DNA of 26,785 nt from positions 1 to 26,785 of IMG/VR virus record IMGVR_UViG_3300035183_000867; one strand, given 5' to 3'. Each line of letters opens with the position of its first letter. Position 1 is the first letter of the stretch. This DNA comes from a virus. Below, piece after piece: positions 6,306-26,785 of this stretch. Below the pieces are notes generated by a model. It had not been told where the DNA came from. It saw only the letters and a list, made by a program, of their open reading frames with translations, and made no database searches. Position numbers and translations under genes: made by a program.

Positions 6306-6505
6306 CACGCTTTCTCTTTTAGTAAACTGATTATTGAGTCTAGTTTTGTTTCAATATCAGAGACTCGTTTTTCTATCTCTTCGATGCGCTTGTCGTTTTT
6401 CCTACGCATCAGTGCAGCGCGGTATTCTTTATCATTTTTATTTATCACGAAACAATTATTTACCTTGACATAATTATGATTTTCTCTTATAATCTGTTTA
6501 TTCAT
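6305..6505 (-). CDS. Small coiled-coil protein
   Basis: The 66-residue protein has a charged first half and a predicted coiled coil at about 38-63 (KRIEEIEKRVSDIETKLDSI) with heptad-spaced Ile, Val and Leu. The ATG overlaps the stop of the 1830-residue gene by 4 bases (ATGA), and its own stop overlaps the fibre ATG. Its place between the large baseplate/fibre protein and the fibre suggests a connector or trimerisation helper. I do not recognise a named family. A perfect sigma70 promoter on the opposite strand lies inside the start of this gene. Confidence 0.6.
   Translation of the reverse strand: MNKQIIRENHNYVKVNNCFVINKNDKEYRAALMRRKNDKRIEEIEKRVSDIETKLDSIISLLKEKA
6465..6493 (+). promoter_or_regulatory. 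Consensus sigma70 promoter, antisense to the structural operon
   Basis: The plus strand has TTGACA (6465-6470), exactly 17 bases, and TATAAT (6488-6493), matching the consensus at all 12 positions with ideal spacing. It points rightward, against the 1830-residue structural gene. The only start codons just downstream give a six-codon peptide, so any transcript would be non-coding antisense RNA. The match is exact; activity is not shown. Confidence 0.6.
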
Positions 6506-22348: not shown

Positions 22349-22962
22349 ACGATGTCAGTATAAAAAGTTTCATAGCAAAACTCGGAACTGGATTAGCCAA
22401 ACCTTGCCGTTATCGCGTCGAGTTTAGTTTACCTGCTGGTTTTAATGCTCCTGCTTCTTTACCAGGTGTAAACACTGATAGTGCGGCTTCAAATATCAGA
22501 GCCAAAGAAAGAGAATATAACCAAAATGGTTTGGTGAATGTATTGTGCCATACCTGCAGTCTTCCTCAGCGCTCGTTATTAACTTATGAACACAAACAAT
22601 TATCGGCGCCTTATAGAGTTCCCTATTCGCAAACTTATGATCCTGTTACTTTTAGTTTTTATGCCGATTCGGATTATATTGTGAGGGAGTATTTTGATAT
22701 CTGGCAAAATGCGGTCGTGAATATCGGAAGCAATACGATGAATTACTATAATGAGTTCACCAGTGATGTCAACATTTATGCTATAAATGACGCAGGTGAA
22801 GACACTTACTACGTTACTCTTTATGAAGCGTACCCAATTAACATTGGTATAGTTGATCTTAGTTATAGTAACATGAACGCAACGCAAACAGTCACGGTAA
22901 CTCTGAGCTACAAGTACTGGGCTTCAAGTTATAATGATACGGCTGTGAATAGAACTCAATGA
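22345..22962 (+). CDS. 54: Tail tube initiator / tube-like protein (gp54-like)
   Basis: The 205-residue protein has the T4 tube fold pattern: KPCRYRVEFSLP, then CHTCSLPQRSLLTYEH, YDPVTFSFYADSDYIVREYF, DIWQNAV, MNYYNEFTSDVNIYAI and TVTLSYKYWASS. This is shared by gp19 (tube) and gp54 (first ring on the baseplate). A position beside the baseplate genes and a length above gp19 (163) favour gp54, although T4 gp54 has 320 residues. The ATG at 22345 overlaps the previous stop (ATGA) and has GGAAG upstream. A TTG five codons earlier is less likely. A second tube protein could be encoded elsewhere. Confidence 0.75.
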   Translation: MNDVSIKSFIAKLGTGLAKPCRYRVEFSLPAGFNAPASLPGVNTDSAASNIRAKEREYNQNGLVNVLCHTCSLPQRSLLTYEHKQLSAPYRVPYSQTYDPVTFSFYADSDYIVREYFDIWQNAVVNIGSNTMNYYNEFTSDVNIYAINDAGEDTYYVTLYEAYPINIGIVDLSYSNMNATQTVTVTLSYKYWASSYNDTAVNRTQ

Positions 22963-23438
22963 TATCTAAAACGTATGAAAATCCATGGTTGTTTAATGGA
23001 GAGCCATTTCTGGATTGTGGCAAATACGCAGGTTTTGTTTATTTGCTAATAGATAAGGTGACTGGCAAGCGATATATCGGCAAGAAATTTTTTTGGTGTA
23101 AACGCAAAGTACCAAACAAGAAACGTCGAGTAACTGTTGAGAGCAACTGGCGAGAATATTACAGTTCGTGTGATGAAATAAAGAAGTTAGTCAAAGAGCA
23201 TGGTAAACAGAGATTTGAACGACATATCCTGAGCTTACATGAACTTGAACGAGATGTGAATTATATGGAAATCAAACTCCAGTATATGCTAGGAGTTTTA
23301 GAAAAGACAGATGAAGAAGGTAATATGCTCTATTACAATGGCAACATTTCAGGGAAACATCATGCACATCTTGTTAGAGGAATTGAAGGAAGAATGAACG
23401 CCATCGATCCTAAAGTTCTAAAATCTTTGGTGATTTGA
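22959..23438 (+). CDS. SegE-type GIY-YIG endonuclease
   Basis: The 159-residue protein has a GIY-YIG fold of the SegE type common in T4-like phages. AGFVYLLIDKVTGKRYIGKK (24-43) carries both motif tyrosines. ESNWREYYSSCDEIKKL (61-77) and NYMEIKLQY (101-109) supply the later conserved block and the likely metal-binding Glu104. Such enzymes cut DNA and can spread as free-standing homing endonucleases. However, a tight ATGA overlap with the tube-like gene suggests a settled gene and not a recent insertion. Its last 21 bases overlap the end of the kinase gene on the other strand. Confidence 0.8.
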   Translation: MISKTYENPWLFNGEPFLDCGKYAGFVYLLIDKVTGKRYIGKKFFWCKRKVPNKKRRVTVESNWREYYSSCDEIKKLVKEHGKQRFERHILSLHELERDVNYMEIKLQYMLGVLEKTDEEGNMLYYNGNISGKHHAHLVRGIEGRMNAIDPKVLKSLVI

Positions 23439-24014
23439 ATTCAGTTTCTCAACAACGTACCATACACGATCTTCGAGATTTATTATTTGCGACGGAATGA
23501 TGTGAAATTTCTCAGGCCATAGATAGTTAACTCCGAATGCCAGTATATTGTTATTGATCGCCGTCCGATAGATATCTCCTAGAAAAACTTCTCCTTCTTT
23601 ACCAACTTCAGGCACCACAGGAATGCCTGGCTGCACAAGAAATATCTCATCAAAATGTTTTTGGGTTAAATCAATCACTTTATCGACATAGGATCTCGTG
23701 GTGTCGGACCATAAATCGCTGCACGTATGATCCAGAAAAGCGAACAGATACCCAAGCAAGTCAAGAGGAGTCCTATCAGCGACAAAGGCTTTTTCTGCTT
23801 TTTCATATTGTCCTCTTAAGTAATCTAATAGACCAAACTGAATTTTTAATCTTTCAGCAAACGTAACAATATCGGAAGGAGAGGTTTGTGTTTCCTTCCA
23901 GACAGGAGCTTGACTGACATTAGTAACAAGAAAATGAATTCCTAGTTGCTCAGCAATAATTCGTGCGAGCGTGGACTTCCCTGTCCGATGCGCTCCACAG
24001 AAGCCAATTCTCAT
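23418..24014 (-). CDS. P-loop kinase (AAA_28-like)
   Basis: The 198-residue NTP-binding protein has a Walker A motif GAHRTGKST at residues 7-15 and a VADRTPLDLLGYL segment (78-90) typical of AAA_28/NadR-like and nucleotide kinases. D80-R81 probably act like the DR of dNMP kinases. The substrate is unknown: nucleotides, NMN-type or RNA ends are all possible. The ATG at 24014 is chosen because GAAGG lies 8 bases upstream; a TTG at 24029 would overlap the previous stop. It is last in an operon with an RNA ligase, so nucleic acid end repair or nucleotide metabolism is plausible. There is no terminator before the convergent nuclease gene. Confidence 0.75.
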   Translation of the reverse strand: MRIGFCGAHRTGKSTLARIIAEQLGIHFLVTNVSQAPVWKETQTSPSDIVTFAERLKIQFGLLDYLRGQYEKAEKAFVADRTPLDLLGYLFAFLDHTCSDLWSDTTRSYVDKVIDLTQKHFDEIFLVQPGIPVVPEVGKEGEVFLGDIYRTAINNNILAFGVNYLWPEKFHIIPSQIINLEDRVWYVVEKLNSNHQRF

Positions 24015-24025
24015 GCCGGCGACCT

Positions 24026-24214
24026 TCAATTATTCACTTTCTTAACTTCGCAAGTACTCACGAATTTTTTAATTTTACCTTCTTGCGTCAGCTCAGTAGT
24101 GAACGAGTTGTTTTTACAGTTCATTAGATATGAACGAAAAGCACTCTCCGTTGCTTGACGTGCATCGCAGCCTGCGACGATAACGGTCGCGATTAAAACA
24201 AAAAGTAATTTCAT
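24026..24214 (-). CDS. Small lipoprotein
   Basis: The 62-residue protein has a classic lipoprotein signal: MKLLFVLIATVIVAGC, with lipobox VAGC and the lipidated Cys at 16. The ATG at 24214 is fixed by a very strong ribosome binding site (AGGAGGAG, 24226-24219), and the 10 codons upstream in frame are discarded. Asp at the +2 position (CD) is, in enteric bacteria, an inner-membrane retention signal. The 46-residue mature part has two more Cys (33 and 55) that could form a disulphide. Superinfection exclusion, lysis or membrane anchoring of partners are possible. The inner-membrane signal argues against a standard outer-membrane spanin. Confidence 0.8.
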   Translation of the reverse strand: MKLLFVLIATVIVAGCDARQATESAFRSYLMNCKNNSFTTELTQEGKIKKFVSTCEVKKVNN

Positions 24215-24218
24215 GTTA

Positions 24219-24226
24219 CTCCTCCT
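24219..24226 (-). promoter_or_regulatory. Strong ribosome binding site of the lipoprotein
   Basis: AGGAGGAG ends four bases before the ATG at 24214. It decides the start and marks this small gene as highly translated within its operon. Confidence 0.85.
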
Positions 24227-24228
24227 GT

Positions 24229-24405
24229 TCAATGAAGCGCCCAAAGCAAAATGATTTCAATGACCACCAATACTACATAGTAAATCACCACAAACGCGAT
24301 GAACAACAACAGACACAGAATGATTTTTTTGAGCACAAAACGTAATTTGTCCCGAGGAACCATAACCAACAAAATGACAAACGCAAAAATCAAAAGGAAA
24401 TCCAC
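24229..24405 (-). CDS. Two-span membrane peptide
   Basis: The peptide of about 58 residues has two hydrophobic segments (about 2-17 and 29-55) joined by a basic loop (PRDKLRFVLKK). The start is uncertain. GTG at 24405, 5 bases after the RNA ligase stop, is preferred; ATG at 24441 would overlap that gene by 31 bases and lacks a ribosome binding site. It directly precedes the lipoprotein gene. Size and topology fit a holin-like or small immunity/exclusion protein, but no family is recognised. Confidence 0.55.
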   Translation of the reverse strand: MDFLLIFAFVILLVMVPRDKLRFVLKKIILCLLLFIAFVVIYYVVLVVIEIILLWALH

Positions 24406-24410
24406 ACTTC

Positions 24411-25502
24411 TTACCCCCCAAAGTTTTGATTGAAGACACATACCAAAGGCAGTTCTTTCAATCGCCTTTCTTTCCAGACTTTAGCGAAATCAACCTCCTT
24501 TCCATCATATAACTTCATTGCCAGTTTGAAATTTTCATGCTTACCGAACTTCATGGCCGCTTCTTTTCTAGAAGGTAGCAAGCGAATCTCTTCAAGCAAA
24601 TCCTCTGTGTTCTTACGAATCTGATTGATCTCTTCGACTACTTGACGTTCGATTTCTTCGATTGGCGCCAGATCTTTACCATCCAAAGACAAAGAACTCT
24701 TCAAATCATCGACAGTTTCATCTACGACTGCTTCAGCCACATCTCTGATCCTGAGTTTCGTCGTCGAACGATGATTGCGCAAGTACCACTCAGTTTTGAA
24801 TTTCACTCGCTTCTGGTTAGGCAGAAGAACCACATACCCTTCAAAATTCTCGCGTGTTTTCATCTCATGGAGTATCTCACCCCTGTCGAGTTCAACTTCA
24901 TCAATGTAATCGACTTCAAAGACAGTAGCAATTTTCTTGATGATGTCGAAGTCCAGATAGTTGCCTGTGATGTTATCTCGAACAGCCAGTAACGTGAACT
25001 TGGGCACAGGGCCATAATTGATGACGACTTGCCAATTAGGATGTGTGAATTCGAAGATAGGAGTCAAATTATTTTCACAAATGAACTTCGAAAATTTCAG
25101 AAGATTCTCATCCGCAACTTTCTGCGCTTCAAGGGCTACATCAGAGAAGAACGATTTTTTGGTCTTGAAGTAAACTTTGCCATCAATCAAGACAGGAACG
25201 ACCATACTTCCATCGCGTTTTTCGAAGACGCGAGCCATATTGAAATCAAGTCGATCTAACTTAGTCTCTTCACGTTCATTTACATTGAAGAATTTCTCGA
25301 AAGGACGAGACAAGCAAACTCCCGTCTTGACGCAGAACACGGGCCCTCTGGTCTCAAGAGCCATTTCTTTCTTCCAGAAGTCTTCAGTGGCAATCATATA
25401 AGAGACGATGACGACATCCCTGTCACCAATCGTTTCCTGTTTGAAAGAAACTCTCGGGTCTGAGCGAAGATGATTGAAACTTGCAAGGTTGAATGGTTTC
25501 AT
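24411..25502 (-). CDS. rnlA: RNA ligase (T4 Rnl1-like, RnlA)
   Basis: This ATP-dependent RNA ligase seals 5'-phosphate and 3'-OH RNA ends through a lysine-AMP intermediate. Motif I is EK95RDGS, with K95 the AMP-binding lysine. ALETRG (48-53), SRPFEKFFNVNE (65-76), FEF near 150, motif IV EGYVV (221-225) and motif V VKFK (233-236) fit T4 Rnl1 closely. The C-terminal part (about 250-363) matches the Rnl1-specific domain in length. ATG at 25502 gives 363 residues (T4: 374); a GTG at 25517 overlapping the previous stop is possible. In T4 this enzyme repairs tRNA cut by the host anticodon nuclease PrrC, with Pnkp; no Pnkp-like gene is seen here. Confidence 0.92.
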   Translation of the reverse strand: MKPFNLASFNHLRSDPRVSFKQETIGDRDVVIVSYMIATEDFWKKEMALETRGPVFCVKTGVCLSRPFEKFFNVNEREETKLDRLDFNMARVFEKRDGSMVVPVLIDGKVYFKTKKSFFSDVALEAQKVADENLLKFSKFICENNLTPIFEFTHPNWQVVINYGPVPKFTLLAVRDNITGNYLDFDIIKKIATVFEVDYIDEVELDRGEILHEMKTRENFEGYVVLLPNQKRVKFKTEWYLRNHRSTTKLRIRDVAEAVVDETVDDLKSSLSLDGKDLAPIEEIERQVVEEINQIRKNTEDLLEEIRLLPSRKEAAMKFGKHENFKLAMKLYDGKEVDFAKVWKERRLKELPLVCVFNQNFGG

Positions 25503-25513
25503 TTCACTCACTC

Positions 25514-25810
25514 TCACATCGAATAGACTACCACGCGCTTAGCTTTTATGATTGCATGCCTCACCATATTGATATGCTCTTTGACAATACTCCTCATCGA
25601 ATCGGCTTCCTTACTGCTTTGAAATACCCCATCTGCGTGACTACTGACCCATTCAAAATATCGTGCAATTGCCGCTTTTGCTTGCTTGCCAGTTAGCTCG
25701 TACTCGATCACTCCATCATCCGTGGTCATGCACATGCAGGTGATGTAAGACGGGGTTTGCCACAGATCGACTGGTTTGTCGTCGGCAGTCAAATACATAT
25801 TGATGCTCAT
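25514..25810 (-). CDS. Hypothetical protein, 98 residues
   Basis: There is no recognised family. The ATG at 25810 is chosen because GAGGGATAAGAAT lies directly upstream and the gene then starts 4 bases after the preceding stop; a TTG at 25825 is less likely. The sequence begins with a beta-like half (KPVDLWQTPSYITCMCMTTD, then VIEYELTG), followed by a helical half (KQAKAAIARYFEWVSSHADG). It sits between another unknown gene and the RNA ligase, in the same operon. Confidence 0.65.
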   Translation of the reverse strand: MSINMYLTADDKPVDLWQTPSYITCMCMTTDDGVIEYELTGKQAKAAIARYFEWVSSHADGVFQSSKEADSMRSIVKEHINMVRHAIIKAKRVVVYSM

Positions 25811-25814
25811 ATTC

Positions 25815-26324
25815 TTATCCCTCAACTTTCAATTCAAAATGCGCCTTACTGATTTCACCTAACAAATTATGCATCCAAGACATGGAACGTTCGATAACCT
25901 CTTCTTCTTCGAGAATACGACGCTCACATATCTCAGCTTTCAATACACCTCTGCGTTTCTCCTCTTCCCATTGCTCTTTGTTTTCAATGGCGCGTTCGAG
26001 TTGTTGAATGATCTTCTTGCAGATGCGTGTGAGTTCTTGTTGTGCTTCACGAAAAGAGATTCTTGAAGCACCTACAGGTTTTTCAACTAGAACTCTCTTT
26101 CCATTTTTGAACTCACACTTCTTGAACACATCGCAATCAATGATCTCAACGTTACCGACCATGCCGACTTTATAAGACCGCTCGGCTTTTTGTACTTCAA
26201 GGCCGAATACTTTTCGCACCCAATCTTCTGCGGCTTGGTAATCGGAGGCATGAACTTTGAAGATGTGCGGTTGCTTGGTTGCTGGATCCTTCAAGAAAAC
26301 TTGAAACGTTTTTGGTTTGTTCAT
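25815..26324 (-). CDS. Hypothetical protein, first gene of the RNA ligase operon
   Basis: The 169-residue protein is of unknown family. The N-terminal part (FQVFLKDPATKQPHIFKVHA, DYQAAEDWVRKVFGL) looks like a small alpha/beta domain. Residues about 95-150 are very rich in Glu, Lys and Arg and probably form a long helix or coiled coil (LERAIENKEQWEEEKRR). The start is firm: GGAGA lies 7 bases before the ATG, downstream of a consensus sigma70 promoter. As the first product of a host-polymerase-driven operon it is probably made early. Confidence 0.75.
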   Translation of the reverse strand: MNKPKTFQVFLKDPATKQPHIFKVHASDYQAAEDWVRKVFGLEVQKAERSYKVGMVGNVEIIDCDVFKKCEFKNGKRVLVEKPVGASRISFREAQQELTRICKKIIQQLERAIENKEQWEEEKRRGVLKAEICERRILEEEEVIERSMSWMHNLLGEISKAHFELKVEG

Positions 26325-26355
26325 GATGTATCTCCTTTTTTCACTCTACGATTAT

Positions 26356-26384
26356 ATTATAGTACATCTTTCACAAGATGTCAA
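26356..26384 (-). promoter_or_regulatory. Consensus sigma70 promoter of the RNA ligase operon
   Basis: The minus strand has TTGACA (26384-26379), a 17-base spacer and TATAAT (26361-26356), matching at all 12 positions. It lies 32 bases before the ATG of the 169-residue gene. This suggests use by unmodified host RNA polymerase, that is, early expression. Confidence 0.92.
26364..26381. promoter_or_regulatory. Palindrome in the promoter spacer, possible operator
   Basis: ACATCTT and AAGATGT form a perfect 7-base inverted repeat with a 4-base centre (TCAC). It fills the spacer and touches the -35 box, a classic repressor position. Confidence 0.55.
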
Positions 26385-26388
26385 GCAC

Positions 26389-26414
26389 TTTTTGAAAATT
26401 TTTTGAACTTTTTT
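26389..26414. promoter_or_regulatory. Phased A-tracts upstream of the promoter (UP-like)
   Basis: Three T-runs on the plus strand begin at 26389, 26399 and 26409 (5, 6 and 6 bases), exactly 10 bases apart and immediately upstream of the -35 box. Phased A-tracts bend DNA and can bind the polymerase alpha subunit. Confidence 0.65.
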
Positions 26415-26421
26415 GAGAGAG

Positions 26422-26453
26422 AGGACATCCTTGTCCTTCAGCGACAAACGCTG
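26422..26453. other. Two small hairpins after the VWA-like gene
   Basis: AGGACA/TGTCCT (422-437 in the last kilobase, loop of 4) and CAGCG/CGCTG (439-453, loop of 5) lie between the VWA-like stop and the next promoter. No T-run follows on either strand, so termination is uncertain. Confidence 0.4.
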
Positions 26454-26463
26454 TGACGTATCT

Positions 26464-26785
26464 TCAATTGAGAAAAATCTTATCACCGAACGGCACTTCT
26501 CGGTTCTCAGTCAGCACCCAAAGAGTAGGATAAGGGGGAACCGTTTTAGGATAATCCCCGTACCCGTCCGTGAAGTACAAAAGCACATCTGGCATCACTC
26601 CTTCCTTCTCCACCCAGTTGAAAGCAGGTCTGAAATCCGTTCCACCTCCTCCAATCGGGTCAAGAACTACAGAGCTATACTCGTCGAAATAATCAACTTT
26701 CGCCACGTTGGCGTCACAGTAAACGACGTAAACATTTTCAATAGAAATTTCATCCTTAATTGCATTTATTTCTGAAGCGAAACTC
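26464..26785 (-). CDS. VWA-like (DUF2201-type) protein, 5' end outside the window
   Basis: Only the last 107 residues are visible; the frame stays open to the window edge. The segment has ENVYVVYCDANV, then LDPIGGGGTDFRPAFNWVEK and PDVLLYFTDGYGDYP, ending in TLWVLTENREVPFGDKIFLN. This is the C-terminal VWA-like part of DUF2201 proteins, where the GGGGT(D) and D/TDG motifs form the metal site. Such proteins are usually encoded beside a MoxR-type AAA ATPase, which would be expected just to the right. Its function in phages is unclear. Confidence 0.75.
   Translation of the reverse strand, partial: SFASEINAIKDEISIENVYVVYCDANVAKVDYFDEYSSVVLDPIGGGGTDFRPAFNWVEKEGVMPDVLLYFTDGYGDYPKTVPPYPTLWVLTENREVPFGDKIFLN

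What the first reader, a model, noticed from the sequence alone, without database searches (positions are those of the whole stretch)
23418..26324. Candidate counter-defence operon: RNA ligase, membrane peptide, lipoprotein, kinase and two unknowns
A sigma70-driven operon joins an Rnl1-type ligase (in T4 the answer to tRNA cleavage by PrrC) with a two-span membrane peptide, an inner-membrane-type lipoprotein, a P-loop kinase of unknown substrate and two unrecognised proteins. The mix of RNA repair and membrane parts could oppose tRNA-cutting defences and also block superinfection. Lack of a Pnkp-like gene here raises the question whether the kinase heals RNA ends.
Basis: partly seen in the sequence, partly recalled or inferred. 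Interest (0 to 1): 0.6.

Follow-up and report, generated by a model that had tools for sequence, protein, structure and literature searches.

The report
Phage early operon with RNA ligase
A strongly promoted early operon in a T4-like phage holds a genuine RNA-repair ligase, but the kinase beside it looks like an ordinary nucleotide kinase rather than an RNA-end kinase, and comparison with relatives suggests a shuffled set of accessory genes rather than one dedicated anti-defence machine.

Summary
Six co-directional genes (minus strand, 26324-23418) follow a 12/12 consensus sigma70 promoter. The ligase is Rnl1-type with its adenylyltransferase motifs. The lipoprotein, two-span peptide and both unknowns are real, selected genes.

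The 198-aa P-loop protein is not Pnkp-like: its profile shares only the P-loop with Pnkp, and it lacks the Asp/Arg of the 5'-kinase site and the HAD phosphatase domain. Its model matches deoxynucleoside kinase, thymidylate kinase and NadR folds. Most relatives sit beside dUTPase, ThyA/ThyX, DHFR, RNR, dCMP deaminase or QueE.

'No Pnkp here' says nothing, because the window is a 26.8-kb fragment. Complete phages YB07 and X1 carry a full Pnkp 20-30 kb from the same type of ligase. One large contig carries Pnkp, Rnl1 and this kinase as three separate genes.

The operon is conserved only among near relatives. A sister lineage keeps the kinase in place without the ligase.

Best reading: an early accessory operon in a variable locus. 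The ligase seals cleaved tRNA using ends healed by a Pnkp encoded elsewhere; the kinase feeds nucleotide metabolism; the two envelope proteins are unassigned.

The parts
26356..26384 (-). sigma70-type promoter, TTGACA-17-TATAAT
   Evidence: 12/12 consensus
25815..26324 (-). unknown protein, 169 aa (predicted beta N-part plus helical hairpin, low confidence)
   Evidence: 40% identical relative in sister phage G005 about 10 kb from the kinase
25514..25810 (-). unknown protein, 98 aa; absent from relative L003
24411..25502 (-). T4 Rnl1-type RNA ligase, 363 aa, catalytic motifs intact
24229..24405 (-). hydrophobic membrane peptide, 58 aa, probable GTG start
24026..24214 (-). small lipoprotein, 62 aa, Asp at +2, two further conserved Cys
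23418..24014 (-). P-loop kinase of the TMK/deoxynucleoside kinase/NadR fold group, 198 aa

Best explanation
This is an early, sigma70-transcribed accessory operon in a variable locus beside the gp4/gp2/tail-tube/segE block of a T4-like phage. The Rnl1 ligase seals cut RNA, most likely tRNA broken in the anticodon loop by a host nuclease, after the ends are healed by a Pnkp encoded elsewhere in the genome. The P-loop protein is a small-molecule nucleotide kinase (dNMP or deoxynucleoside) serving the phage nucleotide pool and is not functionally tied to the ligase. The membrane peptide and lipoprotein are early envelope proteins of unknown target. Shown: genes, promoter, ligase family and motifs, kinase fold, lack of Pnkp hallmarks, and breakdown of the gene order in relatives. 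Inferred: tRNA as substrate, Pnkp in this genome, the kinase substrate, early timing, and co-transcription without functional coupling.
For: Promoter and operon. Ligase. Kinase fold: AlphaFold pLDDT 82.9; Foldseek best match is Mycoplasma deoxyadenosine kinase, E 5e-6, then Aquifex thymidylate kinase; NadR, thymidylate and deoxyadenosine kinases tie at Z 14-15. Kinase context in relatives: dUTPase, ThyA, RNR, dUTPase, RNR, ThyX, dUTPase, ThyA, DHFR, ThyX, and ThyX, QueE, GTP cyclohydrolase or dCMP deaminase, QueE. Pnkp with Rnl1 but apart in YB07 and X1; 13 of 21 large Pnkp contigs also hold Rnl1. G015 has Pnkp, Rnl1 and this kinase as separate genes. Sister phage G005 keeps the kinase without Rnl1.
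Against: The six genes share one promoter and tight spacing in the window, and the same order in L002 (with a TnpB insert), which can mean joint function. No Pnkp has been seen in the window's own clade, whose contigs are all fragments. The kinase's neighbours in this clade are not dNTP genes, and NadR-type folds score equally, so its substrate stays open.
Confidence: 0.66

Rival explanations
1. A dedicated counter-defence operon: the ligase repairs tRNA while the membrane peptide and lipoprotein block superinfection, with the unknowns and kinase as partners.
For: One perfect early-type promoter, tight gene spacing and purifying selection on all parts; early expression would suit exclusion proteins better than lysis proteins.
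Against: Parts come and go: L003 lacks the 99-aa gene and has a second membrane peptide, L002 carries a TnpB insert, and L008/G005 keep the kinase in place without the ligase, lipoprotein or membrane peptide. Other Rnl1 neighbourhoods examined show no homologue of the partners beside the ligase.
Confidence: 0.12
2. The P-loop kinase is a stand-in Pnkp that phosphorylates RNA 5' ends for the ligase.
For: It is a P-loop kinase in the same transcript as an RNA ligase; in sister phages a true Pnkp-type kinase domain lies about 1 kb upstream of this kinase.
Against: Profile comparison with Pnkp aligns only 20 P-loop columns, probability 2.3%. There is no Asp between the P-loop and residue 48, where Pnkp has D35/R38, and no phosphatase domain. 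A Pnkp or Pnkp-type kinase domain and this kinase coexist in G005, L008 and G015.
Confidence: 0.04
3. The kinase is a nicotinamide riboside kinase that helps restore NAD+ during infection.
For: NadR kinase domains tie for best structural score. Such P-loop kinases are described in jumbo-phage NAD salvage systems (PMC7824862).
Against: No NAD genes were recognised beside it here or in the relatives examined, whose recognised neighbours are mostly dNTP or deazaguanine genes; no NadR adenylyltransferase domain.
Confidence: 0.12
4. The membrane peptide and lipoprotein are lysis proteins (holin and spanin), comparable to T4 pseT.2/pseT.3, which I recall lying near rnlA.
For: In YB07, X1 and contig G025 the ligase sits one or two small genes from a cell-wall hydrolase gene.
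Against: The 58-aa peptide has no room for the periplasmic domain of an inner spanin. Asp at +2 of the lipoprotein suggests inner-membrane retention (rule from E. coli). The operon promoter is an early type.
Confidence: 0.06
5. The ligase gene is kept mainly for tail-fibre attachment, as proposed for T4 gp63, rather than RNA repair.
For: PHROG 562 carries the name 'RNA ligase and tail fiber protein attachment catalyst'; the window holds tail genes.
Against: The adenylyltransferase motifs are intact under strong purifying selection; the promoter is early-type; ligase genes recur beside Pnkp in other phages.
Confidence: 0.08

Closest known systems
T4 RNA ligase 1 (Rnl1, gp63)
   Same: Same family, aligned motifs and similar size
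   Different: About 34% identical to T4-type Rnl1 over two thirds of its length; C-terminal domain only weakly recognised; different neighbours from T4
Rnl1 of Stenotrophomonas phage YB07 and Xanthomonas phage X1
   Same: 40-43% identical; in YB07 it lies at the same place, 2.3 kb from the convergent segE/tail tube/gp2/gp4 block
   Different: The genes between are unrelated to those here and none is a membrane peptide; both phages carry a full Pnkp 20-30 kb away
Thymidylate and deoxynucleoside kinases, AAA_28 phage kinases
   Same: Fold, P-loop and DR motif (DRTPLD)
   Different: Only 14-20% identity to solved members; substrate not determined
T4 Pnkp (PseT)
   Same: Both are P-loop phosphotransferases
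   Different: No shared profile beyond the P-loop, no D35/R38, no phosphatase domain

Membership tests
T4 Rnl1 RNA ligase | Nucleotidyltransferase motifs KxDG, EGY, KxK | tested here: met
   KRDGS, EGYV and VKFK aligned to T4 Rnl1 2c5u
T4 Rnl1 RNA ligase | Rnl1 C-terminal domain / full-length equivalog score | tested here: inconclusive
   T4_Rnl1_C E 0.0021, below cut-off; TIGR02308 148 bits against cut-off 242
T4 Rnl1 RNA ligase | Seals PrrC-type tRNA breaks | not testable with these tools
   Needs biochemistry or complementation
Pnkp (PseT), for the kinase gene | Kinase-domain profile match beyond the P-loop | tested here: not met
   hhalign probability 2.3%, 20 columns
Pnkp (PseT), for the kinase gene | Catalytic Asp and Arg (T4 D35, R38) | tested here: not met
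   No Asp between the P-loop and residue 48; retained in the true Pnkp-type gene of L008
Pnkp (PseT), for the kinase gene | HAD phosphatase domain | tested here: not met
   198 aa, no HAD match; present in G015 Pnkp
Thymidylate/deoxynucleoside kinase superfamily | Fold and DR motif | tested here: met
   Foldseek E 5e-6, Z 14-15; D80 R81 invariant across A4
Thymidylate/deoxynucleoside kinase superfamily | Activity on a nucleoside or dNMP | not testable with these tools
   Needs an assay
NadR | Fused NMN adenylyltransferase domain | tested here: not met
   198 aa, kinase domain only
NadR | Ribosylnicotinamide kinase domain fold | tested here: inconclusive
   Ties with thymidylate kinase at Z 14.9
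Inner/outer spanin pair | Inner spanin with periplasmic domain | tested here: not met
   58-aa peptide, hydrophobic almost throughout
Superinfection exclusion proteins | Match to a described family | tested here: inconclusive
   No match in Pfam, PHROGs, NCBIfam or PADLOC that names such a function; absence proves nothing for 58-62 aa proteins

The most novel reading that the evidence does not exclude
The operon is a true two-layer counter-defence unit: tRNA sealing by Rnl1 combined with an early inner-membrane peptide and lipoprotein that exclude superinfecting phages or quench a membrane-bound defence, with the 169-aa and 98-aa proteins as new RNA-repair or immunity factors.
Probability: 0.08. 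Interest if true: 0.5.

Novelty: new member of a known kind. Interest (0 to 1): 0.27.

Why it matters
It places an intact Rnl1 and a candidate pair of early envelope proteins in an uncultured T4-like lineage, and it warns against reading function from co-transcription in phage early regions. If the envelope proteins did work with tRNA repair, that would be a new style of combined counter-defence. The sister lineages, one with Rnl1 and one with a stand-alone Pnkp-type kinase domain plus many tRNAs, are a useful natural comparison.

Tried and rejected
A near-DNA match of 22900-26785 in phage records gave nothing. The two unknown proteins have no relatives in phage records, and a viral scan found the 169-aa protein only in the same two contigs. 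The lipoprotein was found only in this clade (its single weak phage hit, E 0.6, was set aside). The 169-aa model is low confidence (pLDDT 68.9), so I did not search with it. A Pnkp scan of viral contigs found none from the samples holding the window's clade; the clade's contigs are fragments, so this is not evidence of absence. No Rnl1, no Rnl2 above cut-off (the weak match is the DNA ligase-like gene) and no full-length Pnkp was found in G005. PADLOC gave only a weak P-loop match for the kinase. A literature search for AAA_28/NadR-type phage kinases found nothing. My first dN/dS run misread two loci because alignment rows shared their names; it was redone correctly. I did not measure the background rate of nucleotide genes near random genes, so the kinase context is a count, not a statistic.

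Full report
What the window is. It is a 26,785-base virus record holding the structural block of a T4-like phage, including terminase small subunit, tail sheath stabilizer, baseplate wedge and hub genes on the minus strand and DNA end protector, tail tube and a segE-like gene on the plus strand. Closest named phages by a baseplate wedge protein are Acidovorax ACP17, a Variovorax phage, Xanthomonas X1 and the Stenotrophomonas menderaviruses, at 40-46% identity. Those phages have genomes of about 156-200 kb, so the window would be about a sixth of a genome of that size.

The observation. Six minus-strand genes run from 26324 to 23418 with little or no space between them. Upstream lies TTGACA-17-TATAAT (26384-26356), the only perfect match; the scan's total of six promoter-like sites equals chance, but the other five score only 9 of 12. 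The same kind of promoter stands at the same place in L002 (perfect) and L003 (weaker), and similar promoters precede many small gene groups of the relatives. All six genes are under purifying selection.

The ligase. It matches Pfam RNA_lig_T4_1 at 3.6e-23 and PHROG 562 at 5e-74, and solved T4 Rnl1 at 1.2e-30 with KRDGS, EGYV and VKFK in register. The C-terminal domain is weakly recognised (E 0.0021, below cut-off), and the NCBI equivalog score is below cut-off, so it is a divergent Rnl1. In T4, Pnk and Rnl1 together restore tRNA-Lys cut by PrrC (PMC3014915; PMC2610378). That this ligase does the same is inference from family.

The kinase. It belongs to AAA_28 (2.9e-7). An AlphaFold model from ten sequences reached pLDDT 82.9. 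Foldseek's best match is Mycoplasma deoxyadenosine kinase (E 5e-6), then thymidylate kinases. A second aligner puts NadR, thymidylate kinase and deoxyadenosine kinase level at Z 14-15. By sequence the best full-length solved match is the same deoxynucleoside kinase (E 8e-4). Against a Pnkp alignment only the P-loop aligns, and the Asp and Arg of the Pnkp 5'-kinase site are missing. Relatives elsewhere lie beside dUTPase, thymidylate synthase, RNR, DHFR, dCMP deaminase, QueE and GTP cyclohydrolase; two Vibrio phages and Achromobacter phage Motura show no such gene within the stretch read. A nucleotide or nucleoside substrate is therefore most likely; a nicotinamide riboside kinase is not excluded.

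Is Pnkp missing? The window has none, but that is weak evidence. YB07 and X1, which hold some of the nearest ligases in complete genomes, carry full Pnkp genes about 20 and 30 kb away. Among 21 large contigs selected for Pnkp-type genes, 13 also have Rnl1; in several the two genes are neighbours. This sample was chosen for having Pnkp, so it says nothing about how often Rnl1 occurs without it. Contig G015 holds Pnkp, a methyltransferase, Rnl1 (42% identical to this one) and a metallophosphoesterase in one cluster, with the AAA_28 kinase about 9 kb off beside a deaminase and QueE. No Pnkp was found in contigs of the window's own clade, all fragments.

Is the operon a unit? In the closest relatives the order is kept but parts vary: L003 lacks the 99-aa gene and has a second membrane peptide, and L002 carries a TnpB gene between the peptide and the lipoprotein. 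In L005 and L006 only the lipoprotein, kinase and a related peptide are visible before the contig ends. In the sister lineage (L008 and the 126.7-kb G005) the kinase stays in place at 56% identity, but no Rnl1 is found in G005, and the lipoprotein and membrane peptide are not detected; a Pnkp-type 5'-kinase domain without phosphatase stands about 1 kb upstream, and a tRNA-Met gene lies between the kinase and segE. The 169-aa protein has a relative in G005 about 10 kb from the kinase. In YB07 the ligase stands at the same place as here, upstream of the convergent segE/tail tube/gp2/gp4 block, but with unrelated neighbours. The position thus holds RNA-end genes in three lineages, with changing company.

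The envelope proteins. The lipoprotein has a varied signal peptide but a nearly invariant mature part with two further cysteines, which argues for a specific contact outside the cytoplasm. The membrane peptide is 58 residues with a positively charged loop. Early-type transcription speaks for a role in takeover or exclusion rather than lysis, but this is inference; no family match supports any role.

Verdict.

Noticed in passing
window 6465-6493, + strand: A perfect TTGACA-17-TATAAT promoter that points against the minus-strand tail genes.
   Followed up: no
L002 7360-8565: A lone TnpB (OrfB/Cas12f-like) gene inserted in the relative's copy of the operon between the membrane peptide and the lipoprotein, with no TnpA seen.
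   Followed up: partly
L032 5478-5802 (G005): A betaproteobacterial-type permuted tmRNA (Rfam RF01850, RF04321) in a T4-like phage contig that also has 14 tRNA genes; hints at a betaproteobacterial host.
   Followed up: partly
L008 3542-4018; L022 12321-12791: Pnkp-type 5'-kinase domain without its phosphatase half, near the AAA_28 kinase in the sister lineage.
   Followed up: yes
L027 6866-7255; L120 4387-4857: Similar small proteins resembling a macro-domain family lie near the AAA_28 kinase in both G005 and G015; no Pfam match, the resemblance is from memory.
   Followed up: partly
window 22959-23438: segE-like GIY-YIG protein (Pfam 1.3e-41) whose PHROG family, and the YB07 record, are named 'NAD synthetase', apparently a misannotation.
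   Followed up: no
window 26464-26785; L034 9243-10343 and 15808-16776: DUF2201 metallopeptidase/VWA gene upstream of the operon and, in the relative, what looks like a MoxR-type AAA gene, with arrays of similar small genes between.
   Followed up: no
L026 13357-19437 (G005): Several genes encoding proteins with repeated C-x-FG motifs, possibly beta-helical.
   Followed up: no
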